NCBI RefSeq assembly: GCF_910596095.1
Contig: NC_056550.1
Coordinates: 12,274,501-12,338,500 of the forward strand
Origin: Thunnus maccoyii
Lineage: Eukaryota; Chordata; Actinopteri; Scombriformes; Scombridae
Direction of reading: 5' to 3'
Length of the DNA: 64,000 nt
Part shown: positions 19,112 through 45,139 of the stretch, in pieces
How the letters are laid out: each line of letters opens with the position of its first letter
How positions within the stretch are numbered: the first letter of the stretch is position 1
Translations under genes and position numbers: made by a program
The notes under the pieces: generated by a model
What the model saw: only the letters and a program-made list of their open reading frames with translations
What the model was told of the DNA's origin: nothing
Databases searched by the model: none

Positions 19112-19383
19112 GTATGTTCTTTTATTATTTCCGATTGAAGAAAGAAATTCCTAATCACATCATTAAAATATATATAATCATTTTCAGGTGGTCACAACTG
19201 TTGGCCAGTGATAAGACAGCCAACAGCATTTTGTAGCCTGACAAAGAACTGATCAAAAGTTTAAAACTCCTGACTGTTAACATAAGACAGTTAACATAAG
19301 TCTATCAACTGCTGTATATTTTAGTGTGATTTTAATTGTTTCCTGAATCACATTGTATGACATGAAGTAATGGGATAGTAATG

Positions 19384-19476
19384 GGTTTTTGTGAGAAGTG
19401 TGAATTGACTTACTTTACTGTGACAACTGGGCTTTTGACTACTGGGGAAAAGGCACTATGGTAACAGTAACATCAG
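19384..19476 (+). other. JH5 with 23-RSS (variant heptamer)
   Basis: Nonamer GGTTTTTGT (19384-19392), 23-bp spacer, heptamer TACTGTG (19416-19422). The 54-bp coding segment 19423-19476 encodes NWAFDYWGKGTMVTVTS, then a GTAAAA donor. Confidence 0.93.
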
Positions 19477-19740
19477 GTAAAATATGTACCATTTAAAATC
19501 TACAGCAGGATGTGTTTCAAACTTTGAAAAGTCATGTTTAAGTTATACTGTAACTTCTCAGTATTGTAAAGCAAAGTGTTTTTAACATGAGAAAAGTCAA
19601 AACAGCGATATTCTCAGTAGGATACGATGAAGGATATTTTTGGCAAATTTATATTTTGGTCGTTAAAGTGAATTTTATAACAAAACAGGGTTAATTAAAT
19701 GTAAAGGTTAACTTTTTACGCAGGCCATTAGTAGATGTAG

Positions 19741-19834
19741 CGTTTTTATACTAACAGTTAAGTAGATTCAGCACTGTGCTACTACGGTGCTTTTGACTAC
19801 TGGGGAAAGGGTACAACAGTAACTGTTTCATCAG
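19741..19834 (+). other. JH6 with 22-bp-spacer RSS
   Basis: Nonamer CGTTTTTAT (19741-19749, two mismatches), 22-bp spacer, heptamer CACTGTG (19772-19778). The 56-bp coding segment 19779-19834 encodes YYGAFDYWGKGTTVTVSS, then a GTAAGA donor. It is the longest J and the closest to Cmu. Its nonamer is the weakest of the six. Confidence 0.92.
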
Positions 19835-20355
19835 GTAAGAATACTCTTTGATCTCATAAATAATCGCTAAATCGAAACAAAAGAAATATGTTTTTGTGAC
19901 AAATTGTTCCTACTGATACTATAATGTGACTGCAATCAACACGGTCAGTTGATCGGTCGTTTATCCGTTTATCCGATCCGTGCTGCAATTTCAAAATTAC
20001 AAATAATTATTGTTTTAGATGTTGTTAAAGTTATGCATTGAAAGAGATTTACCTATTCTATATGGAATAACAAAATCACACAAATAATGTTATTTAGGTA
20101 TGTTAATCTTAGTGCAACATAAAATGTCTAAATAAATGGGATCGGGTGACAAAGGTCCGCGTATGGAGGGAACTTTATATTTCCAATTTCACCATTTAAA
20201 AAGGTAATGGTTTTCATGCTGTGCTTTGTTATACGACTGTATCAACTCAATTGTACATCTCTTTGTTGTAACCGGTTCTTGGTGAAAAATAACTTATGTT
20301 AAAATTAAATTTAATTTTGATATGTTAATTACATGTCTGCTTTTCCCCTCTTTAG
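19835..20355 (+). other. J-Cmu intron
   Basis: About 520 bp separate the JH6 donor from the Cmu1 acceptor (TTTAG at 20351-20355). I see no octamer or E-box cluster like the mammalian intronic mu enhancer, and no switch-like repeats. This agrees with what is known of teleost IGH, which does not class-switch by switch regions. Confidence 0.7.
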
Positions 20356-20658
20356 CCACACCACGTGCACCGACTCTGTTTCCCCTGGCACCATGTGGCT
20401 CTGGGACTGGAGACATGGTCACTCTTGGCTGCCTCGCCACCGAGTTCACACCCAGCTCAGTGACCTTCTCATGGACCAAAAGTGGGGCTGCCCTGACTGA
20501 CTTCATCCAGTATCCTCCAGTACAGAAAGGCGAATTTTATACGGGAGTCAGTGAAGCCCAAGTGAGGAGACAGGACTGGGAGGCAAAGCAACATTTTCAG
20601 TGTATTGTGACACATCCAGAGGGAACTGTTGAAGCCGAAATACCTCCGTATCAACCAC
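20356..20658 (+). CDS. ighm: Ig mu constant exon Cmu1
   Basis: First constant domain of IgM and, by alternative splicing, of IgD. The 303-bp exon starts after TTTAG. It completes a codon with the final G of the J segment (phase 1) and ends before GTAAGA. The domain shows the LAPC cysteine expected to bond the light chain, the intradomain pair GC...FQC and the core Trp in VTFSW. Frame and junctions agree with Cmu2 (P codon across the junction) and with Cdelta1. Confidence 0.96.
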
Positions 20659-21670
20659 GTAAGACTTATCCCATGTCATATATTATTACAAATTACTTTA
20701 AATAGTTGATATAGATATAGAATAGTTGAACTAGGGTTTTTAGCATGACAGTGTTGTTAACATATTTTATAACTGTGCAAAAAAATGTACATGCAGTTTG
20801 GGAATAATAACTGATTGATAATGTCATACTGGATTTAATTTAATTTTGTTTTTTTACAAAATCATTTGGTAACCTTATGTCAAATGACTAGTAAATAACT
20901 ATTCAAGTTACAAAACTCTTGCTGTTATAATAATTTTATAATAAATGTATTTATATAACACAATTCATCCAATAAATGCAGATCCGAGTGCTTTACCAGA
21001 TAAAATGAAAGACTAAAAGATCAGAAGGAAACAATAATAAAGTTATAAGTCAGTGTTATTGTTGTAGTTTGTCTATAGGCAGTTCATTACTATTACTTTG
21101 CTTTGTTGGTTTTCCTAAGAAACATTATTGGAGAACTGTCAAAATATTAAATAGTGTGACATAATCTCAGATATTTTTAATTGCAGAATCAGTAGGCCTA
21201 GCAGGCAAAACAAACAGTGAGGTGGAATAAAAAGGCTGAAGCTTGCTCATGTATATTCAGCTGCTGACTTTCTCTCAACTGTCCAAGAGCAGATTATTGC
21301 AAAGTGTTCTGCTTCTGTCCATCTATCTGCATAATAGTTCTTGTTCTTCTTGATCTCTGTCTGCTTTCACGTTCACTGTATGTTGTTAATTAACATTCAC
21401 TGTTCATAAAAAATGTTTAATCTGTGTTTGCTTGCCTGAACAGTCAATGTATATGCAGAAGCGAGCGTATACTGTCAAAAGTATGTTATAATTGTTTGTT
21501 TTTTTCCATGGAAATTTCCTTTTGACTCTTTCTGCACACTTGAGTTACAAGTTAATAATAATTTGAGGAGAGTAATCAGTATGTTCACGTATATATGCAA
21601 GTTGCATAACATACACTAGAAAAGTCTATAGATTAAATGGACATTGTAGCAAACTGTTCACCTCTGCTTC

Positions 21671-21728
<58 letters not shown>

Positions 21729-21784
21729 TATATATTATTCCTGGCTTCCGCATACATATATTTGTGTATATGTTTGTTTTTCAG
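20659..21784 (+). other. Cmu1-Cmu2 intron with (TA)n tract
   Basis: The 1126-bp intron is the longest between mu domain exons. A pure (TA)n microsatellite occupies about 21675-21735, within 110 bp of the Cmu2 acceptor. Length variation there could affect splicing, which is inference. Confidence 0.85.
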
Positions 21785-22123
21785 CGATTTTTCAGTTGCC
21801 AACTCTTAAAGTGTTGGCCTCCACTGATGATGGAAGCGAGGTTTCCTTCTCCTGCTTTGCCAAAGATTTCTCACCAAAAAAATATGAGATCAAATGGCTG
21901 AAAGATGACGGGGAAATCTTCAACAAACTAAATGAGACCATTATGGAAAGCCAGACCAACGATGGAAAGACACTGTACAGTGTAGCAAGTTTTCTCACGG
22001 TATCCACCGGGGACTTGATTACTCATTCCACTAAGTTTACATGTGAGTTTAAGGGGAAAAATGAAAACGGTGATGCATTTGTGAATTCAACTGTGACCTA
22101 CGGAGGGTCATGTTCTGGGTCAA
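21785..22123 (+). CDS. ighm: Ig mu constant exon Cmu2
   Basis: The 339-bp exon follows GTTTTTCAG and ends before GTGAGT. The domain has the pair SFSC...FTC, core Trp in IKWLKDD, and N-glycosylation sequons NET and NST. A second TTTTCAG at 21789-21795 would start in phase 0 and break the frame, so 21785 is chosen. The exon ends in a short GSCSGS stretch whose extra Cys may link two heavy chains (inference). Confidence 0.95.
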
Positions 22124-22237
22124 GTGAGTATATTTCTTTTTCTTTAAAAAATGATGTAAATTCAATTTCAATTCTAATGCTTTTGCAGCCATGTTCATTC
22201 AATAATTGTTAAATAATTCTTCACTCTACATAACCAG

Positions 22238-22549
22238 CTGGATGTGAAGTACCAGATGTGGAAGTAGAGATCAAAGGCCCCACAATGACGGACATGTTTG
22301 TAGAGAATAAAGGAACTTTAGTATGTCAAGTCAAGATAAACAAGCCACAGGTCACGAAGATTTTTTGGGAGGATGAGAATGGAAAGAGCATGATTGAAGA
22401 ATCAGTCCCCGCTGATGGATTTAAAGGCACAGTCAATGTTAAACTTGACATCACGTATGAAGAATGGACTGCTGGGAAAAAGCGTGTCTGCGTTGTTCAA
22501 CATACAAATTTTCTGGAACCAATAAAGAGAGTGTATGAAAGGAAGATTG
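22238..22549 (+). CDS. ighm: Ig mu constant exon Cmu3
   Basis: The 312-bp exon follows AACCAG and ends before GTAAGA in phase 1. It shows the pair LVC...RVC and Trp in IFWED. Its donor can join either Cmu4 (secreted form) or TM1 (membrane form) in the same frame, as in most teleosts. Confidence 0.95.
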
Positions 22550-22684
22550 GTAAGAAAACCACAATTTTATACTAAAATCCTATGTTTGACTCCCATTGCC
22601 ATTTTGTATATTTGTGTATATGATGTCATACAGTAGGTACTTTTGTCTGTGTCAAGAGGCCTAATTGTTTTCTCATGCTTGCAG

Positions 22685-23079
22685 TAGGACCTAAACAGCA
22701 TCCTTCGGTGTTCATGCTGCTTCCAGTAGAACAGGCTAAAAAAGACACGGTGACCCTGACTTGCTTTGTGAAAGGCTTCTACCCCAAGGAGGTGTTGGTG
22801 TCTTGGCTTGTTGATGATGTGCCAGCATCAGACACAAATTACGATTTCAGTACCACAAACCCTGTAGAGAGCAATGGATTCTATTCTGTCTATGGCCAGT
22901 TAACACTCAGCCTTCACGATTGGAAGGACAGTGACACGGTGTATAGCTGTGTAGTTTACCATGAATCTCTGAAAAACACAACTAAAGCCATCGTCAGGTC
23001 CTTTGCGCACGGATCATCTGCACAAACCAATCTGGTCAACCTCAACATGAACATCCCTGAAACGTGCAAGGCCCATTAG
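22685..23079 (+). CDS. ighm: Ig mu constant exon Cmu4 with secretory tail
   Basis: This exon encodes the last domain of secreted IgM, with LTC...YSC, Trp in VSWLVDD and an NTT sequon. A tail ending NIPETCKAH precedes the stop TAG (23077-23079). The penultimate-region Cys is the one used for polymerisation in secreted IgM. From my exon model the secreted constant region is 449 residues. No internal donor for a mammal-type Cmu4-TM1 splice is needed. Confidence 0.95.
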
Positions 23080-25970: not shown

Positions 25971-26163
25971 ACTTTAAGATACCAAACACTGTAAACGTAC
26001 AACTCTGCCATCTAGCCTAAATACAAAGATATTACACTCAGAATTGTGACTACAATCTGAAGGTATGTATAATTAAAGAGATCAAATCAGCTAAAAATTT
26101 TTAAAATATCCAACAATGTGGAATAATACATGAAAATAAATAATAATCTCTTTTCTATTTCAG

Positions 26164-26475
26164 CACAAATTGTCTCTCCAAACATCACATTATACCCTGT
26201 TTGGGAAGGCGAATTCAGGACCTCAGCAGTCAAACTTGTTTGCACCATGAGTGAGTTCTTTCCAGACGCACTGAGTGTGACGTGGCAACAGGACAACCGA
26301 CCCTTAAACACTGGGCCAACCCAAAGGAAGCTGCAGAGTGTGGGAGAGGAGAAGACCTTCAGTTTAAGCAGTGAGATTGAGCCGAATAAGTCAGAGTGGG
26401 AAAAAGGCTCAAATTTTTCATGCAATTCTAGGCACAACGACAAAGACTTTACAAAATCCATAAGTATTTGTGAAA
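26164..26475 (+). CDS. ighd: Ig delta constant exon Cdelta1
   Basis: The 312-bp exon follows TATTTCAG and ends before GTAAGT. Phase 1 allows joining from the Cmu1 donor (P codon across the junction), giving the chimeric Cmu1-Cdelta1 start typical of teleost IgD. It shows LVC...FSC, Trp in VTWQQDN, and sequons NIT and NFS. Confidence 0.94.
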
Positions 26476-26603
26476 GTAAGTATGTACAGCTATTTTCACA
26501 GCACAATATGAAAATTGCTGACATATAGTTTTAATTTCAAAAATGTAATAAACTAAATTCAATGAGATTAACATTTTGGCCAAACACATTTTTTTTCTGG
26601 CAG

Positions 26604-26900
26604 TATACGGAAGAACTCCTCCTTCTATTCATGTGAAGCTTCCCAGCTTCAAGACAGTAATCATGGCAGCAACTGAGGTGACAGCAACTTGTGAGGTCCA
26701 CACTGTCTTTGATGCCAGCTTGACCTGGCTGATAGATGACAAACCTCTGCCCAGTGACCAAGTGAAGCAGGCCACAAACTCAACTCATATAATCAGCAGT
26801 CTGACAGTTTCCGTAAGTCAGTGGAAAGCGATGAAGCTTCTAAAATGTAAAGCTGAACATACATGCTTCTCATCCGCTGAGAAGACCATAAATGTTACAG
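26604..26900 (+). CDS. ighd: Cdelta2, unit 1 (diverged copy)
   Basis: The 297-bp Ig-domain exon follows CTGGCAG and ends before GTAAGA. It shows TATC...LLKC and Trp in LTWLIDD. It differs from all later delta2 copies at its start (YGRTPPSIHVKL), at VHTVFDAS and at WKAM. It lacks the NLT sequon present in the others. It is the unit least affected by homogenisation. Confidence 0.94.
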
Positions 26901-26994
26901 GTAAGAGGACTAGACAAAATATAAATCAGGTGTGTTTTGAGAGTGAAGGATCTAAAAGAGAACATTTGCTTTGTTTCTTGTTATTATCCTCCAG

Positions 26995-27309
26995 GGCCTC
27001 CAGTTACACATCCATCAGTGGAGATCAGGAGATTTCTCCCAGATATACTGAAAGGCAACAGAACTGTGCTTGAATGTTACATCACACAACTCTCCTCCAG
27101 TGATGTCTACGTCACTTTTCAGGCCGACAATGTTGACATCTCTGATAAACAGTTTGTTGATCTTCCTGAAGCCCCAGGCCCTCATTCAATCAGTAAATAC
27201 TTCACTGTCCCCCAAAACAACTGGTATAATACCGGAGGTTTCACCTGCACAGTGAATCTCGGCATCTCCAGCGACAAAATCCCGTCAAGAGCCATTGACA
27301 ATATTTCTG
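26995..27309 (+). CDS. ighd: Cdelta3, unit 1
   Basis: The 315-bp exon follows CCTCCAG and ends before GTGAGG. The Cys pair is LECY...FTC. The usual core Trp is replaced by Phe (VTFQADN). It carries sequons NRT and NIS. Variant residues are THPSV and DKIPSRAIDN. Confidence 0.94.
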
Positions 27310-27421
27310 GTGAGGGGAATTATTCTTCTTTCTCTTAGTGACAGCTGATATGATGTTGTTTTACACTTTATGAATCTGTAATAGATTGACTCAGTGATGC
27401 ATTGATCCATCTCTCATTCAG

Positions 27422-27706
27422 TGGATCCATCAGTGGAGCTCCTTCTACTTCCCAGTGAAGAGTCAGGATCACAGACACTCGTATGCTCTGGATGGGGATT
27501 CAACCCTCAAATTAAATGGCTTTCTGAGTCTCAGCAAAAAGCTCCATCAACTACTGACACCAGTGTGGCTGCAGATGGACGTGTAGCAGTAACCAGTCAA
27601 CTACGCGTCCCCAAAACAGAGTGGAAGACAGGGAAGGGCTTCACTTGTGAAGTGTCTGACGGGTCTCTGAATAAAAATGTCAGAAAGACCATCAGCTTCT
27701 GCTCAG
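27422..27706 (+). CDS. ighd: Cdelta4, unit 1
   Basis: The 285-bp exon follows CATTCAG and ends before GTAAAA. It shows LVC...FTC with Trp in IKWLSES. Variant residues are NVRKTISF, shared only with unit 2. Confidence 0.94.
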
Positions 27707-27943
27707 GTAAAATTAATTCAAACATAATCCATAATCAATTGAGTTCGAAAGGGCATCAGTGCAGGTAAAATTAGGTGGATAATGATTACCTCATCCTACT
27801 GTCAAAAAATTATTTTAACTGGATTTCAAGTATAATGTCAATATAATCTTAATACATAAAAATAGTTTTTCATGATGAAGTAGTTTAAACATGATTTGGT
27901 CTCGATTTATGATTTTTTTCTTTTCTGTACTTCACATTTTCAG

Positions 27944-28240
27944 CTCATTCAAGCAACCCTCCTTCCATTCATGTGAAGATCCCCAGCTTCAAGACAGTAA
28001 TCATGGCAGCAACTGAGGTGACAGCAACTTGTGAGGCCCAAACTGCCTTTGATGCCAACTTGACCTGGCTGATAGATGACAAACCTCTGCCCAGTGACCA
28101 AGTGAAGCAGGCCACAAACTCAACTCATATAATCAGCAGTCTGACAGTTTCCGTAAGTCAGTGGAAAACAATGAAGCTTCTAAAATGTAAAGCTGAACAT
28201 ACATGCTTCTCATCCGCTGAGAAGACCATAAATGTTACAG
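27944..28240 (+). CDS. ighd: Cdelta2, unit 2
   Basis: Acceptor TTTTCAG, donor GTAAGA. It is the first of six delta2 copies whose proteins are identical (AHSSNPPSIHVKI start, FDANLTW). Sequons are NLT, NST and NVT. Confidence 0.94.
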
Positions 28241-28334
28241 GTAAGAGGACTAGACAAAATATAAATCAGGTGTGTTTTGAGAGTGAAGGATCTAAAAGAG
28301 AACATTTGCTTTGTTTCTTGTTATTATCCTCCAG

Positions 28335-28649
28335 GGCCTCCAGTTACACATCCATCAGTGGAGATCAGGAGATTTCTCCCAGATATACTGAAAGGCAACA
28401 GAACTGTGCTTGAATGTTACATCACACAACTCTCCTCCAGTGATGTCTACGTCACTTTTCAGGCCGACAATGTTGACATCTCTGATAAACAGTTTGTTGA
28501 TCTTCCTGAAGCCCCAGGCCCTCATTCAATCAGTAAATACTTCACTGTCCCCCAAAACAACTGGTATAATACCGGAGGTTTCACCTGCACAGTGAATCTC
28601 GGCATCTCCAGCGCCAAAACCCAGTCAAGAGCCATTGACAATATTTCTG
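28335..28649 (+). CDS. ighd: Cdelta3, unit 2
   Basis: Same exon plan as unit 1. Variants are THPSV and AKTQSRAIDN. Core Trp replaced by Phe. Confidence 0.94.
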
Positions 28650-28761
28650 GTGAGGGGATTTATTCTTCTTTCTCTTAATGACAGCTGATATGATGTTGTT
28701 TTACACTTTATGAATCTGTAATAGATTGACTCAGTGATGCATTGATCCATCTCTCATTCAG

Positions 28762-29046
28762 TGGATCCATCAGTGGAGCTCCTTCTACTTCCCAGTGAAG
28801 AGTCAGGATCACAGACACTGGTATGCTCTGGATGGGGATTCAACCCTCAAATTAAATGGCTTTCTGAGTCTCAGCAAAAAGCTCCATCAACTACTGACAC
28901 CAGTGTGGCTGCAGATGGACGTGTAGCAGTAACCAGTCAACTACGCGTCCCCAAAACAGAGTGGAAGACAGGGAAGGGCTTCACTTGTGAAGTGTCTGAC
29001 GGGTCTCTGAATAAAAATGTCAGAAAGACCATCAGCTTCTGCTCAG
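28762..29046 (+). CDS. ighd: Cdelta4, unit 2
   Basis: Same plan. The protein equals unit 1 (NVRKTISF), but with the silent CTG in place of CTC in the TLVCS codons, as in units 3-5. Confidence 0.94.
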
Positions 29047-29283
29047 GTAAAATTAATTCAAACATAATCCATAATCAATTGAGTTCGAAAGGGCATCAGT
29101 GCAGGTAAAATTAGGTGGATAATGATTACCTCATCCTACTGTCAAAAAATTATTTTAACTGGATTTCAAGTATAATGTCAATATAATCTTAATACATAAA
29201 AATAGTTTTTCATGATGAAGTAGTTTAAACATGATTTGGTCTCGATTTATGATTTTTTTCTTTTCTGTACTTCACATTTTCAG

Positions 29284-29580
29284 CTCATTCAAGCAACCCT
29301 CCTTCCATTCATGTGAAGATCCCCAGCTTCAAGACAGTAATCATGGCAGCAACTGAGGTGACAGCAACTTGTGAGGCCCAAACTGCCTTTGATGCCAACT
29401 TGACCTGGCTGATAGATGACAAACCTCTGCCCAGTGACCAAGTGAAGCAGGCCACAAACTCAACTCATATAATCAGCAGTCTGACAGTTTCCGTAAGTCA
29501 GTGGAAAACAATGAAGCTTCTAAAATGTAAAGCTGAACATACATGCTTCTCATCCGCTGAGAAGACCATAAATGTTACAG
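29284..29580 (+). CDS. ighd: Cdelta2, unit 3
   Basis: Protein identical to unit 2 delta2, with the same splice sites. Confidence 0.94.
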
Positions 29581-29674
29581 GTAAGAGGACTAGACAAAAT
29601 ATAAATCAGGTGTGTTTTGAGAGTGAAGGATCTAAAAGAGAACATTTGCTTTGTTTCTTGTTATTATCCTCCAG

Positions 29675-29989
29675 GGCCTCCAGTTACACGTCCATCAGTG
29701 GAGATCAGGAGATTTCTCCCAGATATACTGAAAGGCAACAGAACTGTGCTTGAATGTTACATCACACAACTCTCCTCCAGTGATGTCTATGTCACTTTTC
29801 AGGCCGACAATGTTGACATCTCTGATAAACAGTTTGTTGATCTTCCTGAAGCCCCAGGCCCTCATTCAATCAGTAAATACTTCACTGTCCCCCAAAACAA
29901 CTGGTATAATACCGGAGGTTTCACCTGCACAGTGAATCTCGGCATCTCCAGCGCCAAAACCCAGTCAAGAGCCATTGACAATATTTCTG
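29675..29989 (+). CDS. ighd: Cdelta3, unit 3
   Basis: Variants are TRPSV and AKTQSRAIDN. A private silent change (TAT for TAC in VYV) marks this copy. Confidence 0.94.
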
Positions 29990-30101
29990 GTGAGGGGATT
30001 TATTCTTCTTTCTCTTAATGACAGCTGATATGATGTTGTTTTACACTTTATGAATCTGTAATAGATTGACTCAGTGATGCATTGATCCATCTCTCATTCA
30101 G

Positions 30102-30386
30102 TGGATCCATCAGTGGAGCTCCTTCTACTTCCCAGTGAAGAGTCAGGATCACAGACACTGGTATGCTCTGGATGGGGATTCAACCCTCAAATTAAATGGC
30201 TTTCTGAGTCTCAGCAAAAAGCTCCATCAACTACTGACACCAGTGTGGCTGCAGATGGACGTGTAGCAGTAACCAGTCAACTACGCGTCCCCAAAACAGA
30301 GTGGAAGACAGGGAAGGGCTTCACTTGTGAAGTGTCTGACGGGTCTCTGAATAAAAATGTCAGCAAGACCATCAGCCTTTGCTCAG
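30102..30386 (+). CDS. ighd: Cdelta4, unit 3
   Basis: First copy with NVSKTISL. Otherwise as unit 2. Confidence 0.94.
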
Positions 30387-30623
30387 GTAAAATTAATTCA
30401 AACATAATCCATAATCAATTGAGTTCGAAAGGGCATCAGTGCAGGTAAAATTAGGTGGATAATGATTACCTCATCCTACTGTCAAAAAATTATTTTAACT
30501 GGATTTCAAGTATAATGTCAATATAATCTTAATACATAAAAATAGTTTTTCATGATGAAGTAGTTTAAACATGATTTGGTCTCGATTTATGATTTTTTTC
30601 TTTTCTGTACTTCACATTTTCAG

Positions 30624-30920
30624 CTCATTCAAGCAACCCTCCTTCCATTCATGTGAAGATCCCCAGCTTCAAGACAGTAATCATGGCAGCAACTGAGGTG
30701 ACAGCAACTTGTGAGGCCCAAACTGCCTTTGATGCCAACTTGACCTGGCTGATAGATGACAAACCTCTGCCCAGTGACCAAGTGAAGCAGGCCACAAACT
30801 CAACTCATATAATCAGCAGTCTGACAGTTTCCGTAAGTCAGTGGAAAACAATGAAGCTTCTAAAATGTAAAGCTGAACATACATGCTTCTCATCCGCTGA
30901 GAAGACCATAAATGTTACAG
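30624..30920 (+). CDS. ighd: Cdelta2, unit 4
   Basis: Protein identical to unit 2 delta2. Confidence 0.94.
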
Positions 30921-31014
30921 GTAAGAGGACTAGACAAAATATAAATCAGGTGTGTTTTGAGAGTGAAGGATCTAAAAGAGAACATTTGCTTTGTTTCTTG
31001 TTATTATCCTCCAG

Positions 31015-31329
31015 GGCCTCCAGTTACACATCCATCAGTGGAGATCAGGAGATTTCTCCCAGATATACTGAAAGGCAACAGAACTGTGCTTGAATGTTAC
31101 ATCACACAACTCTCCTCCAGTGATGTCTACGTCACTTTTCAGGCCGACAATGTTGACATCTCTGATAAACAGTTTGTTGATCTTCCTGAAGCCCCAGGCC
31201 CTCATTCAATCAGTAAATACTTCACTGTCCCCCAAAACAACTGGTATAATACCGGAGGTTTCACCTGCACAGTGAATCTCGGCATCTCCAGCGCCAAAAC
31301 CCAGTCAAGAGCCATTGACAATATTTCTG
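31015..31329 (+). CDS. ighd: Cdelta3, unit 4
   Basis: Variants are THPSV (as units 1 and 2) and AKTQSRAIDN. Confidence 0.94.
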
Positions 31330-31441
31330 GTGAGGGGATTTATTCTTCTTTCTCTTAATGACAGCTGATATGATGTTGTTTTACACTTTATGAATCTGTA
31401 ATAGATTGACTCAGTGATGCATTGATCCATCTCTCATTCAG

Positions 31442-31726
31442 TGGATCCATCAGTGGAGCTCCTTCTACTTCCCAGTGAAGAGTCAGGATCACAGACACTG
31501 GTATGCTCTGGATGGGGATTCAACCCTCAAATTAAATGGCTTTCTGAGTCTCAGCAAAAAGCTCCATCAACTACTGACACCAGTGTGGCTGCAGATGGAC
31601 GTGTAGCAGTAACCAGTCAACTACGCGTCCCCAAAACAGAGTGGAAGACAGGGAAGGGCTTCACTTGTGAAGTGTCTGACGGGTCTCTGAATAAAAATGT
31701 CAGCAAGACCATCAGCCTTTGCTCAG
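31442..31726 (+). CDS. ighd: Cdelta4, unit 4
   Basis: NVSKTISL form, same protein as unit 3. Confidence 0.94.
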
Positions 31727-31963
31727 GTAAAATTAATTCAAACATAATCCATAATCAATTGAGTTCGAAAGGGCATCAGTGCAGGTAAAATTAGGTGGAT
31801 AATGATTACCTCATCCTACTGTCAAAAAATTATTTTAACTGGATTTCAAGTATAATGTCAATATAATCTTAATACATAAAAATAGTTTTTCATGATGAAG
31901 TAGTTTAAACATGATTTGGTCTCGATTTATGATTTTTTTCTTTTCTGTACTTCACATTTTCAG

Positions 31964-32260
31964 CTCATTCAAGCAACCCTCCTTCCATTCATGTGAAGAT
32001 CCCCAGCTTCAAGACAGTAATCATGGCAGCAACTGAGGTGACAGCAACTTGTGAGGCCCAAACTGCCTTTGATGCCAACTTGACCTGGCTGATAGATGAC
32101 AAACCTCTGCCCAGTGACCAAGTGAAGCAGGCCACAAACTCAACTCATATAATCAGCAGTCTGACAGTTTCCGTAAGTCAGTGGAAAACAATGAAGCTTC
32201 TAAAATGTAAAGCTGAACATACATGCTTCTCATCCGCTGAGAAGACCATAAATGTTACAG
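31964..32260 (+). CDS. ighd: Cdelta2, unit 5
   Basis: Protein identical to unit 2 delta2. Confidence 0.94.
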
Positions 32261-32354
32261 GTAAGAGGACTAGACAAAATATAAATCAGGTGTGTTTTGA
32301 GAGTGAAGGATCTAAAAGAGAACATTTGCTTTGTTTCTTGTTATTATCCTCCAG

Positions 32355-32669
32355 GGCCTCCAGTTACACGTCCATCAGTGGAGATCAGGAGATTTCTCCC
32401 AGATATACTGAAAGGCAACAGAACTGTGCTTGAATGTTACATCACACAACTCTCCTCCAGTGATGTCTACGTCACTTTTCAGGCCGACAATGTTGACATC
32501 TCTGATAAACAGTTTGTTGATCTTCCTGAAGCCCCAGGCCCTCATTCAATCAGTAAATACTTCACTGTCCCCCAAAACAACTGGTATAATACCGGAGGTT
32601 TCACCTGCACAGTGAATCTCGGCATCTCCAGCGCCAAAACCCAGTCAAGAGCCATTGACAATATTTCTG
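32355..32669 (+). CDS. ighd: Cdelta3, unit 5
   Basis: Variants are TRPSV and AKTQSRAIDN. Confidence 0.94.
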
Positions 32670-32781
32670 GTGAGGGGATTTATTCTTCTTTCTCTTAATG
32701 ACAGCTGATATGATGTTGTTTTACACTTTATGAATCTGTAATAGATTGACTCAGTGATGCATTGATCCATCTCTCATTCAG

Positions 32782-33066
32782 TGGATCCATCAGTGGAGCT
32801 CCTTCTACTTCCCAGTGAAGAGTCAGGATCACAGACACTGGTATGCTCTGGATGGGGATTCAACCCTCAAATTAAATGGCTTTCTGAGTCTCAGCAAAAA
32901 GCTCCATCAACTACTGACACCAGTGTGGCTGCAGATGGACGTGTAGCAGTAACCAGTCAACTACGCGTCCCCAAAACAGAGTGGAAGACAGGGAAGGGCT
33001 TCACTTGTGAAGTGTCTGACGGGTCTCTGAATAAAAATGTCAGCAAGACCACCAGCCTTTGCTCAG
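32782..33066 (+). CDS. ighd: Cdelta4, unit 5
   Basis: Private substitution NVSKTTSL (Ile to Thr). The following intron has a private T-to-C at about 33191. Confidence 0.94.
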
Positions 33067-33303
33067 GTAAAATTAATTCAAACATAATCCATAATCAATT
33101 GAGTTCGAAAGGGCATCAGTGCAGGTAAAATTAGGTGGATAATGATTACCTCATCCTACTGTCAAAAAATTATTTTAACTGGATTTCAAGCATAATGTCA
33201 ATATAATCTTAATACATAAAAATAGTTTTTCATGATGAAGTAGTTTAAACATGATTTGGTCTCGATTTATGATTTTTTTCTTTTCTGTACTTCACATTTT
33301 CAG

Positions 33304-33600
33304 CTCATTCAAGCAACCCTCCTTCCATTCATGTGAAGATCCCCAGCTTCAAGACAGTAATCATGGCAGCAACTGAGGTGACAGCAACTTGTGAGGCCCA
33401 AACTGCCTTTGATGCCAACTTGACCTGGCTGATAGATGACAAACCTCTGCCCAGTGACCAAGTGAAGCAGGCCACAAATTCAACTCATATAATCAGCAGT
33501 CTGACAGTTTCCGTAAGTCAGTGGAAAACAATGAAGCTTCTAAAATGTAAAGCTGAACATACATGCTTCTCATCCGCTGAGAAGACCATAAATGTTACAG
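33304..33600 (+). CDS. ighd: Cdelta2, unit 6
   Basis: Same protein as unit 2 delta2. The silent AAT for AAC in the NST sequon is shared only with unit 7. Confidence 0.94.
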
Positions 33601-33694
33601 GTAAGAGGACTAGACAAAATATAAATCAGGTGTGTTTTGAGAGTGAAGGATCTAAAAGAGAACATTTGCTTTGTTTCTTGTTATTATCCTCCAG

Positions 33695-34009
33695 GGCCTC
33701 CAGTTACACGTCCATCAGTGGAGATCAGGAGATTTCTCCCAGATATACTGAAAGGCAACAGAACTGTGCTTGAATGTTACATCACACAACTCTCCTCCAG
33801 TGATGTCTACGTCACTTTTCAGGCCGACAATGTTGACATCTCTGATAAACAGTTTGTTGATCTTCCTGAAGCCCCAGGCCCTCATTCAATCAGTAAATAC
33901 TTCACTGTCCCCCAAAACAACTGGTATAATACCGGAGGTTTCACCTGCACAGTGAATCTCGGCATCTCCAGCGACAAAACCCAGTCAAGAGCCATTGACA
34001 ATATTTCTG
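33695..34009 (+). CDS. ighd: Cdelta3, unit 6
   Basis: Variants are TRPSV and a hybrid end DKTQSRAIDN (D as in units 1 and 7, TQ as in units 2-5). Confidence 0.94.
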
Positions 34010-34121
34010 GTGAGGGGATTTATTCTTCTTTCTCTTAATGACAGCTGATATGATGTTGTTTTACACTTTATGAATCTGTAATAGATTGACTCAGTGATGC
34101 ATTGATCCATCTCTCATTCAG

Positions 34122-34406
34122 TGGATCCATCAGTGGAGCTCCTTCTACTTCCCAGTGAAGAGTCAGGATCACAGACACTCGTATGCTCTGGATGGGGATT
34201 CAACCCTCAAATTAAATGGCTTTCTGAGTCTCAGCAAAAAGCTCCATCAACTACTGACACCAGTGTGGCTGCAGATGGACGTGTAGCAGTAACTAGTCAA
34301 CTACGCGTCCCCAAAACAGAGTGGAAGACAGGGAAGGGCTTCACTTGTGAAGTGTCTGACGGGTCTCTGAATAAAAATGTCAGCAAGACCATCAGCCTTT
34401 GCTCAG
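34122..34406 (+). CDS. ighd: Cdelta4, unit 6
   Basis: NVSKTISL form. CTC in TLVCS as in units 1 and 7. A private silent ACT is present in VTSQL. Confidence 0.94.
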
Positions 34407-34643
34407 GTAAAATTAATTCAAACATAATCCATAATCAATTGAGTTCGAAAGGGCATCAGTGCAGGTAAAATTAGGTGGATAATGATTACCTCATCCTACT
34501 GTCAAAAAATTATTTTAACTGGATTTCAAGTATAATGTCAATATAATCTTAATACATAAAAATAGTTTTTCATGATGAAGTAGTTTAAACATGATTTGGT
34601 CTCGATTTATGATTTTTTTCTTTTCTGTACTTCACATTTTCAG

Positions 34644-34940
34644 CTCATTCAAGCAACCCTCCTTCCATTCATGTGAAGATCCCCAGCTTCAAGACAGTAA
34701 TCATGGCAGCAACTGAGGTGACAGCAACTTGTGAGGCCCAAACTGCCTTTGATGCCAACTTGACCTGGCTGATAGATGACAAACCTCTGCCCAGTGACCA
34801 AGTGAAGCAGGCCACAAATTCAACTCATATAATCAGCAGTCTGACAGTTTCCGTAAGTCAGTGGAAAACAATGAAGCTTCTAAAATGTAAAGCTGAACAT
34901 ACATGCTTCTCATCCGCTGAGAAGACCATAAATGTTACAG
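34644..34940 (+). CDS. ighd: Cdelta2, unit 7
   Basis: Same protein as unit 2 delta2. Shares the silent AAT with unit 6. Confidence 0.94.
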
Positions 34941-35034
34941 GTAAGAGGACTAGACAAAATATAAATCAGGTGTGTTTTGAGAGTGAAGGATCTAAAAGAG
35001 AACATTTGCTTTGTTTCTTGTTATTATCCTCCAG

Positions 35035-35349
35035 GGCCTCCAGTTACACGTCCATCAGTGGAGATCAGGAGATTTCTCCCAGATATACTGAAAGGCAACA
35101 GAACTGTGCTTGAATGTTACATCACACAACTCTCCTCCAGTGATGTCTACGTCACTTTTCAGGCCGACAATGTTGACATCTCTGATAAACAGTTTGTTGA
35201 TCTTCCTGAAGCCCCAGGCCCTCATTCAATCAGTAAATACTTCACTGTCCCCCAAAACAACTGGTATAATACCGGAGGTTTCACCTGCACAGTGAATCTC
35301 GGCTTCTCCGGCGACAAAATCCCGTCAAGATCCATTGGCAATATTTCTG
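35035..35349 (+). CDS. ighd: Cdelta3, unit 7 (edge variant)
   Basis: TRPSV. The C-terminus GFSGDKIPSRSIGN is unlike the inner copies but shares DKIPSR with unit 1. Core Trp replaced by Phe. Confidence 0.94.
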
Positions 35350-35461
35350 GTGAGGGGAATTATTCTTCTTTCTCTTAATGACAGCTGATATGATGTTGTT
35401 TTACCCTTTATGAATCTGTCATAGATTGACTCAGTGATGCATTGATCCATCTCTCATTCAG

Positions 35462-35746
35462 TGGATCCATCAGTGGAGCTCCTTCTACTTCCCAGTGAAG
35501 AGTCAGGATCACAGACACTCGTATGCTCTGGATGGGGATTCAACCCTCAAATTAAATGGCTTTCTGAGTCTCAGCAAAAAGCTCCATCAACTACTGACAC
35601 CAGTGTGGCTGCAGATGGACGTGTAGCAGTAACCAGTCAACTACGCGTCCCCAAAACAGAGTGGAAGACAGGGAAGGGCTTCACTTGTGAAATGTCTGAC
35701 GGGTATCTGAATAAAAATGTCAGCAAGACCATCAGCCTCTGCTCAG
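35462..35746 (+). CDS. ighd: Cdelta4, unit 7 (edge variant)
   Basis: Variants EMSDGYL and NVSKTISL. Array homology ends a few bases past its donor. Confidence 0.94.
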
Positions 35747-35906
35747 GTAAAATTAAAACATATTCCATAATCATATAGATGCATTAATTGTCAAATGAAT
35801 ACATTCACACTATTTCTGAATCATCCTTTAAAGAATCTGAGACATATGTTTCTCTTTACTCATTACTTGATGATTGCATTTCTCCCCCTTTAATGTCTTT
35901 TTTCAG

Positions 35907-36233
35907 TAACTCCACCATCATACCAGATAGTTGGTGTGTATATTTGGGGACCACCAGTCCAGCAGCTTCAGAACAAGGGAAAGGTGACTATCACCTGTCT
36001 TCTGGTTGGCCCTCATCTTAATGATTTCTCCATCACCTGGAAAGTAGGTGGGAAAAAATATTCTTCGAATGTGTATATGGAGCCACCAGTGAGTCACAGG
36101 AATGGGACAGAAACTTTGCAGAGTTTCCTCAATGTGTCAGCAGAGGATTGGCACACATATAAACAAGTGTCTTGTGAGGGAAAGCACAAATGTTCCAACC
36201 AGGGCTACGAGGACCATATCAGCAAAAGCAGAG
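35907..36233 (+). CDS. ighd: Ig delta constant exon Cdelta5
   Basis: The 327-bp exon follows TTTTTCAG and ends before GTATTG, phase 1. It shows ITC...VSC with Trp in ITWKVGG. Sequons are NGT and NVS. Near the end are two further Cys (KHKC) beyond the canonical pair. Single copy. Confidence 0.94.
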
Positions 36234-36451
36234 GTATTGTTATATGTAAAATGCATGAAGTTGATTCTTTACAATTCATTAGTGCTGTTTCTGAATTTCT
36301 AGAGTTCAGCATATTTTAAGAAGACAAGATTGCATGAGAAACTCAACAGCTAAAAATTATATTCTCTATGATGCTGAATGTGACTAAATGATGAGATTGA
36401 AAGAGCCAAAATAGAAATATTTATTGTTGTCTTCTCTTTGTGTTTCTCAAG

Positions 36452-36769
36452 AGCTACATCCACCAACAGTGAAAATAATACAACCTACTGTCTCTGAGCT
36501 GTCTACGTCAGACATCCTCGCACTGGTTTGCCTAGTTTCTGGATTTTTCCCATCTAACATCATAGTGAACTGGGAGAAGGATGGCCATAGACTTCCATCA
36601 ACTCAGTACACTAACAGCCCTCTATGGAAATTAAATACAGGGAGCAGTTTTTCAATGAGCAGCAGACTAAACACATCTAAAACCAAGGACCAGGAATCAA
36701 CCTATTCTTGTGTTGTCAGACATGAGTCATCTGAAACGCCTTTTAAAAGCACCATAACGGATGTGTTTG
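36452..36769 (+). CDS. ighd: Ig delta constant exon Cdelta6
   Basis: The 318-bp exon follows TTCTCAAG and ends before GTGAGC. It shows LVC...YSC and Trp in VNWEKDG. Sequon NTS is present. Single copy. Confidence 0.94.
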
Positions 36770-36975: not shown

Positions 36976-37263
36976 CCACTGTGACACCCACCCAACCTTC
37001 AGCCACCTTGGTCGAGGGCTCTGGTGAACTTGTGTGCCTGGTGTTCGGCTTCAGTCCTGCTTCCATTAACATCACTTGGTTCCTTGATGACACCAAGGAG
37101 CTGTTAGACTACAACACCAGCGAACCCCACAGAGGCCCAGACGGAAAGTTCAGCATCCGAAGTCGCCTTCGTCTGTCCCAATCCAACTGGTTGTCCGGGG
37201 CGGTCCACACCTGCAGGGTGACACATACAACCATCACTCTAGCCCTGAATATATCTAAACCAG
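36976..37263 (+). CDS. ighd: Ig delta constant exon Cdelta7
   Basis: The 288-bp exon follows TTCTCCAG and ends before GTGCCA. It shows LVC...HTC and Trp in ITWFLDD. Sequons are NIT, NTS and NIS. The donor is weak after GT (GTGCCA). Reading through it adds only G-A-S before a TAG at 37272-37274. Confidence 0.93.
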
Positions 37264-37387: not shown

Positions 37388-37536
37388 AAATCTTGGAGAA
37401 CTGCGGTTTCTTAGATGACATCATGCATGCTGATGTTAACCAGGACTTAGGAGTGGAAAGCTGGTATATGGCTTTCATGTTCCTCCTGTTTTTCCTCATC
37501 TCCATGGTCTATGGTGTCTTGGCTACCCTGATCAAG
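37388..37536 (+). CDS. ighd: Ig delta membrane exon TM1
   Basis: The 149-bp exon follows GTCACAG and ends before GTGAGA, the same length as the mu TM1 exon. It encodes an acidic linker (EILENCGFLDDIMHADVNQD) with one Cys and then a hydrophobic segment from WYMAFMFLLFFLISM to YGVLATLIK. Confidence 0.94.
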
Positions 37537-40378: not shown

Positions 40379-42273
40379 GCAACAGCGAAATCAGCTCACT
40401 GATCTTACCTCTCCAAGGATGAAGTAGTCGCTACAAGCTCATTCCTGCCTGTTGTGCCCCGGTCCCATCACCGCCGCCGACGGGCATCACTTCTGCTTCG
40501 AGTGCCTTGGACAGGATCACGCAGAGAGCCACATGATGCATCCACCACCCTGCACCACTTCATCAGGCCCTCCACCGCCACTGCCGCCTCAGCTGAGACT
40601 CGTGTGGCTTCTCTGATGGATGATGATGACAACCTCTCATCTGTCTCAGCAAATTCACTGACCTTCAGAAATTCACCGCCAACTTCAGTTCACCACAATT
40701 TTCCAAAGATTATGGCCATGGCGGTGGAGCGTGTTGGGGTCCCTTTGCCCCTCCCCAGCCATCCCACCAAAACCGGTCAGCTGGCTCCATGGGGGATTTT
40801 ACAGACCAACTAATCTGGCTCAACACACCTTTGTTTTGCCTCCTCTCTTTGGACATCTGGCAGTGTGTCAAAGTGTCCTGGAAGGAGCCAGTGAAAACGA
40901 AGTCACCAGTGGCAGGACTAGTATCCTTCCTGAGAGTGCTGGGCCACATGGAGAGAGGCTGTCCCGGTGTGCCGCCCCGGAAGATGCCCTTGTAGCCCTC
41001 TTGATTCCTCACTCGGTGGACTGGGTGGCAGCAGCCTGAAAGCCGTATCCAGGTTGGTGTGGCCCAAGCTGCATCAAGGAGCGTAGACAGACCCTTGCTG
41101 AAGCTGGCTTAGACTTGCGGAAAGTCAGCAGCACCATAATGACTGGATAGCTGAATGAAGAAAGTGTTTGCTCTGCTGGTGCCCCTGCATCTCTTCTCTC
41201 TGTCAGAGAAGCAGATAGCAGGAGGCTGTATTCAGCTGCAGACGGTGCTATCTGAAAACACACATCCTGCCCGACATAGCAACACTCAAAAGCAGATCTG
41301 TATCTCATTGTGCTAACTGGTACCGTTATTTCTCAGAGCAGCCAGTTCAGCGCGTCTCCGTGGGAAATGGTGATGCAGTGGGTGGCATTATGACCTCACA
41401 CAGGAATAATGCCTTGCACCCACACACTGACCGGAGTGAGAACGCTTCATATCTACTTAGTGTTAGCATTGTCTCCTGCTGTTTGTGCTGCCCTGCTTGG
41501 GACCGGCGTATAGAGCTCACCTCTCGGGGTTACATTAGCAAGGCCAGCAGCGCTACTTCCTTCTTGGAGAGTAATGCTACGGGCCCACTCACGGACTGAG
41601 GAGAGGAGACACCGAGTCTGTTCCACTCCCCTTGGTTATTTCTGGGGGAAATACGAAGGGTGACAGACGCACCAACACAAAATCCGATGCTGTGTTGAGG
41701 CAGCTGATGGTGATGCATTCATGGGCCGCTCCATCTGCTCAACCCTTTCAATGCCAGGCCCCCATGGGCCAAACTTTAATTTATGGAAGGTTTGGCAGTG
41801 GAAAGGGCCAAATTGGAATATCACAGCTTCCTGGCTGCTGCCCCCCAACTGACCACCCATCCTCTTAAGCAGTTTTACAAGGAATGGCGTCACAGCTGCA
41901 TGTTATCGGAGTGGATTGACAAAACACTGAGACTGGGTTATTCTCTCCAGTTCTGCTGTGTTCCTCCTCCGTTCTCTGGCATCAAGGAGATAAATCTATC
42001 TTCCCAAGAGGAGATAGATTTTCTCTCCGAAGAGATCCAGGACCTGTTATTGAAACAGGTTGTCTCTATCTTTCCCACTGACGACAGATAGAATGGGTTT
42101 TACTCTGCATACTTCCTGGTTCCTAAGAAAACAGGAGGTTTCAGACCCATTTTGGATCTCCGCATTCTGAACCAATGCATCGCCAGAAAGACATTACGCA
42201 TGCCCATCAGGAGATTGCTGGAACTGGTTCAATCAGATGACTGGTTCATCACCATCAACCTGAAAGTTGCTTC

Positions 42274-43226
42274 TGACAGTATAGCTCCCAAGTTGAGTAT
42301 TGAGTCCCTTTCATCAGCTGTTAGGTCAAACTTAAGAAATCTTGGTGTCATATTTGACCAGGCTATGCATTTTGATCAGCATGTTAAATCATTGACTCGT
42401 ACATGTTTTTTCCATCTACAAAATATCGCTAAACTCAAGTCCATCGTATTACAACTGGAACTAGAAATGATCATCCATGTGTTCATATCATCCCGTTTGG
42501 ACTGTTATAATTCAATTTTCACTTGTCTCAGCAAAGCATCTCTGAACCGGCTACAAATGGTCCAAAATGCAGCTGCAAGGCTGTTAACCAGGTCCAGCAG
42601 GATGACTCACATCTCTCCTATTTTAAGTTCTTTTCACTGGCTGCCCATTCATTTTAGGATTCATTTTAAGGTTCTTGCTATTACATATAGAGCCCTGCAT
42701 GGACAGGCTCCTGAGTACATCATGGACCTTATCCATCCCTACCTCGCCAGTAGGTCACTTAGGTCATCCAAACAGGACCTACTGGCCGTCCCCTCACTCG
42801 TGGCTGAAAACTAAAGGTGATCGTGCCTTTGCATTTGTGGCTCCAACGCTATGGAACTCTCTTCCTGTATATATACGATCAGCAGCCTCTATAGAAGTTT
42901 TTAAAAAACTATTGAAGACCCATCTTTTTAAATTGGCTTTTGTGTCTTCTTGAGTTGTCTGATTGGTGTGTGTGATGTGTAATGATCATTTTTTCATGTG
43001 TTTCTACTTGTGGTACCTTTTTTTTTATTTTAACTTGTGGCATATGTTTTTACTCTATGTATGTTTTTATAGTCTTATTTTCAACTCTTACTCCTGTGAA
43101 GCAAATTTAATTTCTGTGAAAGGTGCTATACTAAATAAACTTATTATTATTATTATTATTATTATTATCATTATTACTATCATTATTATTATTATTATCA
43201 TTATTACTATCATTACTATCATTATT
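42274..43226 (+). mobile_element. LINE-2 (L2) 3' fragment inserted in DIRS B RT
   Basis: The reading frame encodes the C-terminal part of an L2 ORF2, with the blocks LGVIFDQ, HWLPIHFRIHFK, YRALHGQAP and APTLWNSLP. It ends in AATAAA and a TTATTA repeat, the L2 tail. A stop at 42812-42814 breaks the frame. The DIRS RT continues on both sides (AACCTGAAAG at left, CATGTCAAGGTGG at right). This is a 5'-truncated insertion. Confidence 0.85.
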
Positions 43227-43235
43227 TTCATGTCA
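43141..43235 (+). repeat. (TTA)n microsatellite tail
   Basis: TTATTATTA repeats with occasional TCATTAC interruptions, at the 3' end of the L2 fragment. Confidence 0.9.
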
Positions 43236-45139
43236 AGGTGGAACTGAAACACAAGAAGTTCCTCCCCCTTCCAGGGGATAGCCTACAAGTACAACAGGCT
43301 ATCATTTGGCTACTCCCTCACTTCCTGCACATTCAGATGCGTGGACACAGTGCTACAACCTCTGTGTGATGGGGGCATGAAAGTCTTCTTCTACTTAGAT
43401 GACCTCATTGTCATGGCCAGGTCGAGAGAATACGTAGCCAAGTTCATGTTGCATCTAACCTGGTTAGGTTTTGCCATCAACTGGAAGAGCACCCCCAGCC
43501 ACACCAGCAGGCTGAGTATTTGGGAGTCCTGCTTGACTTGTTCAGGGTGCGGGTTGGATGGCCCTGCAGCAGACAGTCCTCAGATGGCAGCGGGGAGTGG
43601 CAGTGACAGCTTTGACTGTCATGCAGGCATTGGGGCTTATGGCAGGAGGCTATCCATTTGTTCCACAAGGGGTTCTGCACATGCGCCATCTGCAATGGTG
43701 GATCGCCAGCCTGCATTTGGATCCCAAGAGACACAAGCACTCCTTGGTGAACCCCCATCAGTGCAGGAGGACCTGCATTATTAGGGAACTCCACAGCATC
43801 TGTTGGCAGGAACATTGCTGGGTCAAGGCACCTCCTACATAGCGGTGTTCACAGATGTGTCCTTGATGGGATGGGGATACACCTGGCTGGGGAGAATGAT
43901 AGGTGGTGTGGCCTTCAGGGGAAAAGTGACGCATCAACCTCCTTGAGCTTCAGGTGATGCTCCTGGTTCTCCAACACTTCTTGACTCTGGTCAAGGGGAG
44001 ACACGTGTTGGTGAAAACAACCACACCACGGTTGCCTACATCAACAGGCGAGGCGAATTCTGATCTGCAGCCTTGTTGAAGATGGCTGAGGACCTGTTGG
44101 TGTGGGCCTCAGGGCACCTCGTGTCTCTGAGAGCCCTCCACATTCCGGGTCTGGAGAACAGGGGTGCCGTCCTCATGTCAAGAGGCAGATTTGGAACCAG
44201 TTCAGGAGAGTGGAAGTGTGGACGTGTTTGAACACATGCCAGGGCCAAGGATGCTGATTTATGCCTTTCCCACTCTTTGTCTCATTCCCCCGCTGCTGGA
44301 GAGAGTGAGACAAGAGCAGCTGTTAGTTATCCCGATAGTCCTGGACCGCCATTCAGCACCATGGTACACAGAGATGACCCAGATGTTGGCGGCCCAGCCC
44401 TGGTCCATCCTCCAAGTGTGGGGGGCTCTGTCCCAGGAGGCAGCCTTGATAGGTGCACTGGCCATGTTAGGTCAAACTCTCTTGAGAGGGACAGGATGAT
44501 GTGGGCAGGACTGTCTGCACAGGTGACGCAGACCATCCAGGTGGCAAGAGTGGGATCCATCATTGCTTGGTGCATGGCACAGTGTTTGGGATTCCAACAC
44601 TGGTGTGAGGAAAGGTGACCAGACCCCCTGAGATGTGCAGTGGGAGAGGTCCCGTCCTTTCTACAATATCTGGTAGATAAAGGGCTGTCCCATGCTACTG
44701 TTTAAGTGTATGTAGCAGCTGTTTCCTCCTGTCATGAGGGGTTTGGCGACAGACCTGTCTTTGCCCACCCCCTCGTGAAGCATTTCCTGCAAGGGGTTAG
44801 GAGACAACAGCTGGTGAGGCATGTCTCCACCCCCCAGTGGGAACTGCTGGTGGTGCTCGAGGCTCTAGTGAGTGATCCCTATGAACCTCTGGAGCGCTCC
44901 TCTTTGAAGGCATTGTCATTCAAGATAGCTTTGCTGCTTGCACTGACTTAAGCTAAGAGAGTAAGCGAGTTGGGCACACTGTCGGTTCACTTCAGTTGTT
45001 TGCTGCTTCATGGTGACCACAGTGGTGCTGCTCTCAGACCGAACCCCTCCTTTGCTCCTAAGAATATAAGGAGCTTGTTTAGGTCGAGAACTAATCAGAT
45101 AGAGGTGTTTTGTCCTCCACCCCATGCGGATGCTAGGGA

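What the first reader, a model, noticed from the sequence alone, without database searches (positions are those of the whole stretch)
26604..35757. Seven delta2-delta3-delta4 cassettes at exact 1340-bp spacing
Seen directly: seven cassettes, introns as conserved as exons, no net indels between neighbours. Duplicated delta2-4 blocks are known in teleosts such as catfish and zebrafish, but seven copies is more than I know of. If all exons are used, the IgD constant region is about 2661 residues with 25 delta domains plus Cmu1. Near-identity of introns means the expansion or homogenisation is very recent.
Basis: partly seen in the sequence, partly recalled or inferred. Interest (0 to 1): 0.9.

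Follow-up and report, generated by a model that had tools for sequence, protein, structure and literature searches.

The report
Seven-cassette antibody (IgD) gene array
A tuna antibody gene carries seven near-identical copies of a three-domain block, so its IgD heavy chain could be about 2,660 amino acids long; the array is really in the sequence, but gene models of other fish have as many or more copies, so it is a good example of a known kind rather than a record.

Summary
Seven delta2-delta3-delta4 cassettes lie at 26604-35746, exactly 1340 bp apart with no indels. All 21 exons are open with compatible splice phases, and the predicted membrane IgD constant region is 2660 aa. A public record, 'uncharacterized protein LOC121883729 [Thunnus maccoyii]' (2571 aa), is letter-identical from delta1 to the end, all seven cassettes included. 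So the genome is southern bluefin tuna or near-identical.

Seven is not a record. Among 120 listed IgD-like proteins, 9 have at least seven complete cassettes; the maximum is nine, in Chelmon rostratus. Copies evolve in concert: in 21 of 24 species the cassettes form a species-specific clade, and both edge copies are the more divergent in 14 of 19 longer arrays. Tuna interior units differ by a mean of 0.34%, against 2.8% between this locus and its paralogue 0.75 Mb away, whose delta gene is broken and has lost the array.

Best reading: an in-frame coding tandem array that grows, shrinks and homogenises by unequal crossing-over or gene conversion. Array length in this individual and cassette use in mRNA remain unproven.

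The parts
20356..20658 (+). Cmu1 exon, predicted to be spliced to delta1 in IgD
   Evidence: Open phase 1-1 exon with AG/GT
21785..23079 (+). Cmu2-Cmu3-Cmu4 exons with secretory end
   Evidence: Spliced frame open; best protein hit is mu heavy chain of Scomber scombrus, 62%
26164..26475 (+). delta1 exon
   Evidence: AG/GT, open, C1-set domain E 2.5e-14
26604..27706 (+). cassette 1 (delta2 26604-26900, delta3 26995-27309, delta4 27422-27706); 5' delta2 divergent edge copy
27944..29046 (+). cassette 2
29284..30386 (+). cassette 3
30624..31726 (+). cassette 4
31964..33066 (+). cassette 5
33304..34406 (+). cassette 6
34644..35746 (+). cassette 7; 3' delta3 and delta4 carry edge variants
35907..36233 (+). 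delta5 exon
   Evidence: C1-set E 6.7e-12
36452..36769 (+). delta6 exon
   Evidence: C1-set E 4e-17
36976..37263 (+). delta7 exon; unspliced read-through would add Gly-Ala-Ser and then stop
   Evidence: C1-set E 2.5e-17; read-through
37388..37536 (+). transmembrane exon 1 of membrane IgD
   Evidence: same residues in P0121
37777..37785 (+). transmembrane exon 2 (two residues and stop)
   Evidence: protein end identical to P0121

Best explanation
This is the constant region of the intact mu-delta locus of a tuna (Thunnus maccoyii by protein identity). Its delta2-delta3-delta4 exon block has become a coding tandem array of seven copies. Every exon of the block is phase 1-1 and each unit adds 299 codons, so gain or loss of a whole unit keeps the frame and adds or removes a 299-residue piece of the IgD heavy chain. 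Mispaired recombination (unequal crossing-over) and gene conversion between units keep interior copies nearly identical, while the first and last units, which have a partner on one side only, keep older differences. If all exons are spliced in, membrane IgD has Cmu1 plus 25 delta domains, most likely a long, glycosylated stalk holding the antigen-binding part away from the B-cell surface. Shown here: the array, open frames, splice-compatible ends, concerted evolution across species, edge effect in tuna and in most but not all longer arrays. Inferred: the recombination mechanism, use of all cassettes, the stalk function.
For: Seven units, exact 1340 bp, all exons open. Public T. maccoyii protein model LOC121883729 identical from delta1 on. 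Seven of seven distinct delta domains match Pfam C1-set above its cut-off. Interior units differ by a mean of 4.6 per 1340 bp (0.34%, ten pairs), against 251 substitutions in 8916 aligned, almost wholly non-coding bp (2.8%; blocks 1.0-5.2%) between the two mu-delta loci. In 21 of 24 species the cassettes form one species-specific clade. Thunnus and Scomber cassettes are 70-73% identical between species, and at least 91.8% (Thunnus) and 96.3% (Scomber) within. Both edge units are less like the interior than interior units are to each other in 14 of 19 species with five or more cassettes. Neighbour sharing: units 1 and 2 alone share two delta4 variants, units 6 and 7 alone share one delta2 variant; units 1, 6 and 7 share two others, and the two edge units share several.
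Against: No reads and no cDNA could be examined. The public protein model may rest on prediction alone. In 5 of 19 species the edge pattern fails, and in 3 of 24 the cassettes are not monophyletic (Dicentrarchus, Pagrus, Sparus); the Siganus clade has support of only 0.66 and Halichoeres copies are as little as 61% alike. The other species' counts come from predicted gene models that may contain errors. The tree was rooted at its midpoint and the 24 species are my selection from 120 listed proteins. One variant (a delta3 site, G in units 3, 5, 6, 7 but A in 1, 2, 4) does not follow unit order.
Confidence: 0.85

Rival explanations
1. Assembly artefact: the true array is shorter or longer, because near-identical 1340 bp units were mis-joined or two haplotypes of different length were merged.
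For: Interior units differ at only 2-8 of 1340 sites. No reads available. The public protein model comes from an assembly that may be the same one, so it is not independent.
Against: All seven units are distinguishable and some variants are shared by neighbouring units, which a simple repeated mis-join would not give. Gene models of eight other species have seven to nine cassettes. The array is about 9.1 kb, within reach of long reads (general knowledge).
Confidence: 0.12
2. The array is real DNA but most cassettes are skipped: mature IgD uses one or a few, and the rest is tolerated neutral excess.
For: Phase 1-1 exons let any cassette be skipped in frame. One Siganus gene identifier is listed with models of five, six and seven cassettes (P0133, P0137, P0129). 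The review PMC5192425 (passages) reports sturgeon transcripts with 3-19 CH domains.
Against: All 21 exons are intact with AG/GT splice sites. Among units 2-6, changes are 5 non-synonymous and 5 synonymous where sites alone would give 3.3 to 1: a hint of constraint, but too few to prove, and over all seven units the ratio is 24 to 11. In killifish and platyfish all 12 IgD exons are expressed in series (PMC7287348, passages).
Confidence: 0.3
3. The cassettes are old and kept similar by purifying selection on protein sequence, not by recent homogenisation.
For: Exons are coding and all open.
Against: Introns and the 237 bp between cassettes are at least as conserved as exons (1 variable site in 443 bp among units 2-6), and cassettes cluster by species in 21 of 24.
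Confidence: 0.02

Closest known systems
Teleost IgD with repeated delta2-delta3-delta4 (catfish and salmon IgHA three copies, zebrafish and salmon IgHB four; PMC3570791, passages)
   Same: Same gene, same three-exon block, same order delta1-(2-3-4)n-5-6-7-TM, Cmu1 upstream for the chimeric chain
   Different: Seven copies here; interior copies nearly identical including introns
Predicted IgD genes of other fish (Chelmon rostratus nine; Channa argus, Sparus aurata and Embiotoca jacksoni eight; Dicentrarchus labrax, Siganus canaliculatus, Antennarius striatus and Halichoeres trimaculatus seven)
   Same: Same block and domain order, similar or larger copy number. The Channa model lacks delta5-7, the Halichoeres model lacks delta7, and several have no recognised Cmu1; doubled delta4 hits in some models were counted as one. 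These eight are listed as hemicentin-1-like (three) or uncharacterized (five), not as IgD
   Different: In most cases each array is its own species' clade; known to me as gene models only
Sturgeon IgD with up to eight (delta2-delta3) duplications in transcripts (review PMC5192425, passages)
   Same: Long IgD through tandem duplication of a domain block, seen in mRNA
   Different: Two-domain block, non-teleost
Channel catfish three mu-delta loci (PMC5192425, passages)
   Same: More than one mu-delta locus in one region, some parts pseudogenised
   Different: In catfish the extra mu genes are pseudogenes and the delta genes intact; here the second Cmu reads open and its delta gene is broken

Membership tests
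Teleost IgD heavy-chain constant gene | Lies directly 3' of Cmu on the same strand with shared JH segments | tested here: met
   Four JH-like segments with CACTGTG heptamers at 18225, 18498, 18691 and 19772, Cmu 20356-23079, delta from 26164
Teleost IgD heavy-chain constant gene | delta1 to delta7 C1-set domains in order, then transmembrane exons | tested here: met
   Seven of seven distinct domains match C1-set above cut-off; exon order and membrane exons
Teleost IgD heavy-chain constant gene | Cmu1 spliced to delta1 in mRNA (chimeric chain) | not testable with these tools
   Splice phases are compatible; no transcripts available; P0121 starts just before delta1 and lacks Cmu1
Teleost IgD heavy-chain constant gene | Tandem delta2-delta3-delta4 duplication (common, not universal) | tested here: met
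   Seven units
Coding tandem array under concerted evolution | Copies more alike within a species than between species | tested here: met
   21 of 24 species monophyletic; Thunnus-Scomber 70-73% against at least 91.8% within
Coding tandem array under concerted evolution | Non-coding parts homogenised too | tested here: met
   1 variable site in 443 non-coding bp among units 2-6; tuna only, other species tested as protein
Coding tandem array under concerted evolution | Edge copies more divergent than interior | tested here: met
   Met in tuna and in 14 of 19 species tested in all; not met in Channa, Dicentrarchus, Halichoeres, Pagrus, Myripristis
Coding tandem array under concerted evolution | Copy number varies between individuals | not testable with these tools
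   Only one assembly could be read

The most novel reading that the evidence does not exclude
The delta2-4 array behaves as a coding minisatellite of percomorph fish: copy number (one to nine seen) turns over fast enough that IgD heavy-chain length is polymorphic between individuals, even between the two alleles of one tuna, so one population would carry antibodies of the same class that differ by multiples of about 299 residues. In support, interior units differ by 0.34%, less than the 0.75% heterozygosity reported for the congener T. thynnus (PMC12186022, passages).
Probability: 0.45. Interest if true: 0.6.

Novelty: new member of a known kind. Interest (0 to 1): 0.35.

Why it matters
IgD function in fish is poorly understood, and its domain number is strikingly variable. 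A gene whose length changes by whole, in-frame, near-identical cassettes gives a natural experiment on what stalk length does in a B-cell receptor. The comparison shows that long IgD arrays recur in fish gene models, the longest of them under names that hide them (hemicentin-1-like, uncharacterized), although some shorter models do carry the symbol ighd or the name delta heavy chain. So the published range of 5-17 or 7-17 domains is probably too low.

Tried and rejected
Seven as a record copy number: rejected, since nine of 120 listed proteins (this one included) have seven or more complete cassettes and four of them have more than seven. Channel catfish as the source (suggested to me by the two loci and the genome size): rejected when the Cmu hits were other fish, Scomber best, and the IgD hit was T. 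maccoyii. Old copies kept by selection: rejected by intron identity. Homology between the inter-cassette intron and its neighbours: a 31-base stretch matches the start of the delta4-delta5 intron, nothing convincing in the delta1-delta2 intron. A sequence search of solved structures gave only antibody constant-domain matches among the 60 shown (judged by their molecule names), one of them named as an IgD heavy chain, 1zvo.

The length limits were therefore about 970-3085 aa, so longer IgD models would have been missed; only the 7982 candidates sharing most words were scored, and 120 of 161 matches were listed. Literature: 8 searches answered; judged from the listings, none showed a paper on tuna IgD or on a seven-cassette array. 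A targeted search on concerted evolution of IgD never ran, so I make no claim that this is not in print. The structure of the chain was not predicted.
Full report
OBSERVATION. A repeat search found seven copies with spacing 1340 six times. A script comparing 26001-36500 with the sequence 1340 bp further on gave 81% identity, against 26-28% at offsets 1337-1339 and 1341-1343. Homology between neighbours starts at about 26611 and ends at 35756. Units 2-6 differ from each other at 2 to 8 of 1340 sites (mean of ten pairs 4.6, 0.34%); unit 1 differs from units 2-6 at 18-24 sites counted from 26611. The variable sites of unit 1 cluster in 5' delta2, those of unit 7 in 3' delta3, the next intron and delta4.

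GENE STRUCTURE. The exon scan and splice model give Cmu1 20356-20658, delta1 26164-26475, seven cassettes (297 + 315 + 285 bp), delta5, delta6, delta7 and two membrane exons. The spliced frame is open for 2660 residues. Each of the seven distinct delta domains matches Pfam C1-set above its curated cut-off. The chain holds 48 N-glycosylation sequons, six of them in cassette 3. In delta3 the canonical Ig-fold tryptophan position appears to be phenylalanine (my reading of the sequence, not a structural test). delta7 could also be read through, adding Gly-Ala-Ser before a stop, which would allow a secreted form; this is inference.

SPECIES AND PUBLIC RECORD. The best Cmu relative is Scomber scombrus, 62%. 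The best IgD relative is P0121, 'uncharacterized protein LOC121883729 [Thunnus maccoyii]', 2571 aa, a cluster of four sequences. From delta1 to the end it is letter-identical to my model. The longest contig listed for it is 30,220,260 bases, while contig C18 here is 30,211,650, so I do not claim it is the same file. The record begins just before delta1 and does not include Cmu1.

HOW UNUSUAL IS SEVEN. I built profile HMMs for each domain and scanned the 120 listed proteins. Complete cassettes per protein: 0 in 2, 1 in 24, 2 in 37, 3 in 19, 4 in 13, 5 in 12, 6 in 4, 7 in 5, 8 in 3, 9 in 1. So 9 of 120 have seven or more. By species: Chelmon nine; Channa argus, Sparus and Embiotoca eight; Thunnus, Dicentrarchus, Siganus, Antennarius and Halichoeres seven. 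These are gene models; 161 proteins matched in all and only 120 were listed, and some species appear with more than one model. Published counts seen in passages: three to four copies in catfish, salmon and zebrafish and 7-17 delta domains (PMC3570791); 5-17 domains (PMC11223323); 17 exons in zebrafish called a record, and sturgeon transcripts of 3-19 CH domains with up to eight delta2-delta3 duplications (PMC5192425); two copies in killifish and platyfish, where the authors call such expansion common (PMC7287348).

CONCERTED EVOLUTION. I took 138 cassettes from 24 species, chosen by me among the 120 proteins, and built a FastTree LG tree rooted at the midpoint. In 21 of 24 species all cassettes form one clade (support 0.99-1.0 in 20, 0.66 in Siganus). 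The exceptions are Dicentrarchus, Pagrus and Sparus, where the first cassette is much more divergent than the rest. In 14 of 19 species with at least five cassettes both edge units are less like the interior than interior units are like each other; Channa, Dicentrarchus, Halichoeres, Pagrus and Myripristis do not fit. This pattern is expected of unequal crossing-over or conversion, where an edge unit has a partner on one side only.

SECOND LOCUS AND TIMING. The genome has a second copy of the JH-Cmu-Cdelta region at about C18:13047400-13061900, 0.75 Mb away on the same strand. Searches with Cmu3-4 and with delta5-TM found only these two loci, plus one short Cmu piece at C18:12263254-12263499 (that tool scores only its best candidates). 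The second Cmu reads open in the exons I aligned, but its delta gene has frame breaks in delta1, delta2, delta5 and delta6, and a deletion joins the start of delta3 to the end of delta4, so it has no array. Substitutions between the loci in seven stretches outside the constant exons (one of them includes the JH segments) sum to 251 in 8916 aligned bases, 2.8%, with blocks from 1.0 to 5.2% (nine short secondary matches of the first stretch were left out). Interior units at 0.34% are thus about eight times more alike, so homogenisation is much younger than the locus duplication. T. thynnus is reported to have 0.75% heterozygosity (PMC12186022, passages), so interior units are more alike than two alleles of a congener. 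Hence my prediction that array length is polymorphic.

SELECTION. Among units 2-6 there are 5 non-synonymous and 5 synonymous changes, with 3.3 to 1 expected from sites alone; over all seven units 24 and 11. This is compatible with weak constraint but too few to be firm.

FUNCTION. A long membrane IgD stalk is the simplest reading, but nothing here tests function or expression. The most likely alternative is that cassettes are partly skipped; annotated Siganus models under one gene identifier have five, six and seven cassettes.

VERDICT. A real, well-formed array; a new member of a known kind. The general result, long and mostly species-specific IgD arrays in fish gene models, the longest under names other than IgD, is the more interesting part.

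Noticed in passing
G000:C18:13047400-13061900 (L011, L012, L013): Second JH-Cmu-Cdelta locus: Cmu exons read open, delta gene is a pseudogene that lost the array by a deletion from delta3 to delta4. Its delta2 exon is only 85% identical to unit 1 (gaps counted), while the 11.4 kb alignment as a whole is 93.6%
   Followed up: partly
G000:C18:12263254-12263499 (L027): Short 95% identical piece of the Cmu3-Cmu4 stretch about 11 kb upstream of the window, probably a relic of another duplication
   Followed up: no
window 18225-19860: Four JH-like segments, each with a CACTGTG heptamer and a WGKG motif
   Followed up: partly
window 42092-52576: Five long open frames on both strands in stretches partly richer in G+C that look like reverse-transcriptase and recombinase pieces of retrotransposons (recognised by eye, not searched)
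   Followed up: no
P0168 (Larimichthys crocea), P0228 (Anabas testudineus): IgD-like models with other repeat patterns: mostly delta3-delta4 repeats in the first, delta1-delta2 repeats in the second
   Followed up: no
P0129, P0133, P0137 (Siganus canaliculatus): Three models under one gene identifier with seven, five and six cassettes, suggesting in-frame cassette skipping or annotation variants
   Followed up: no
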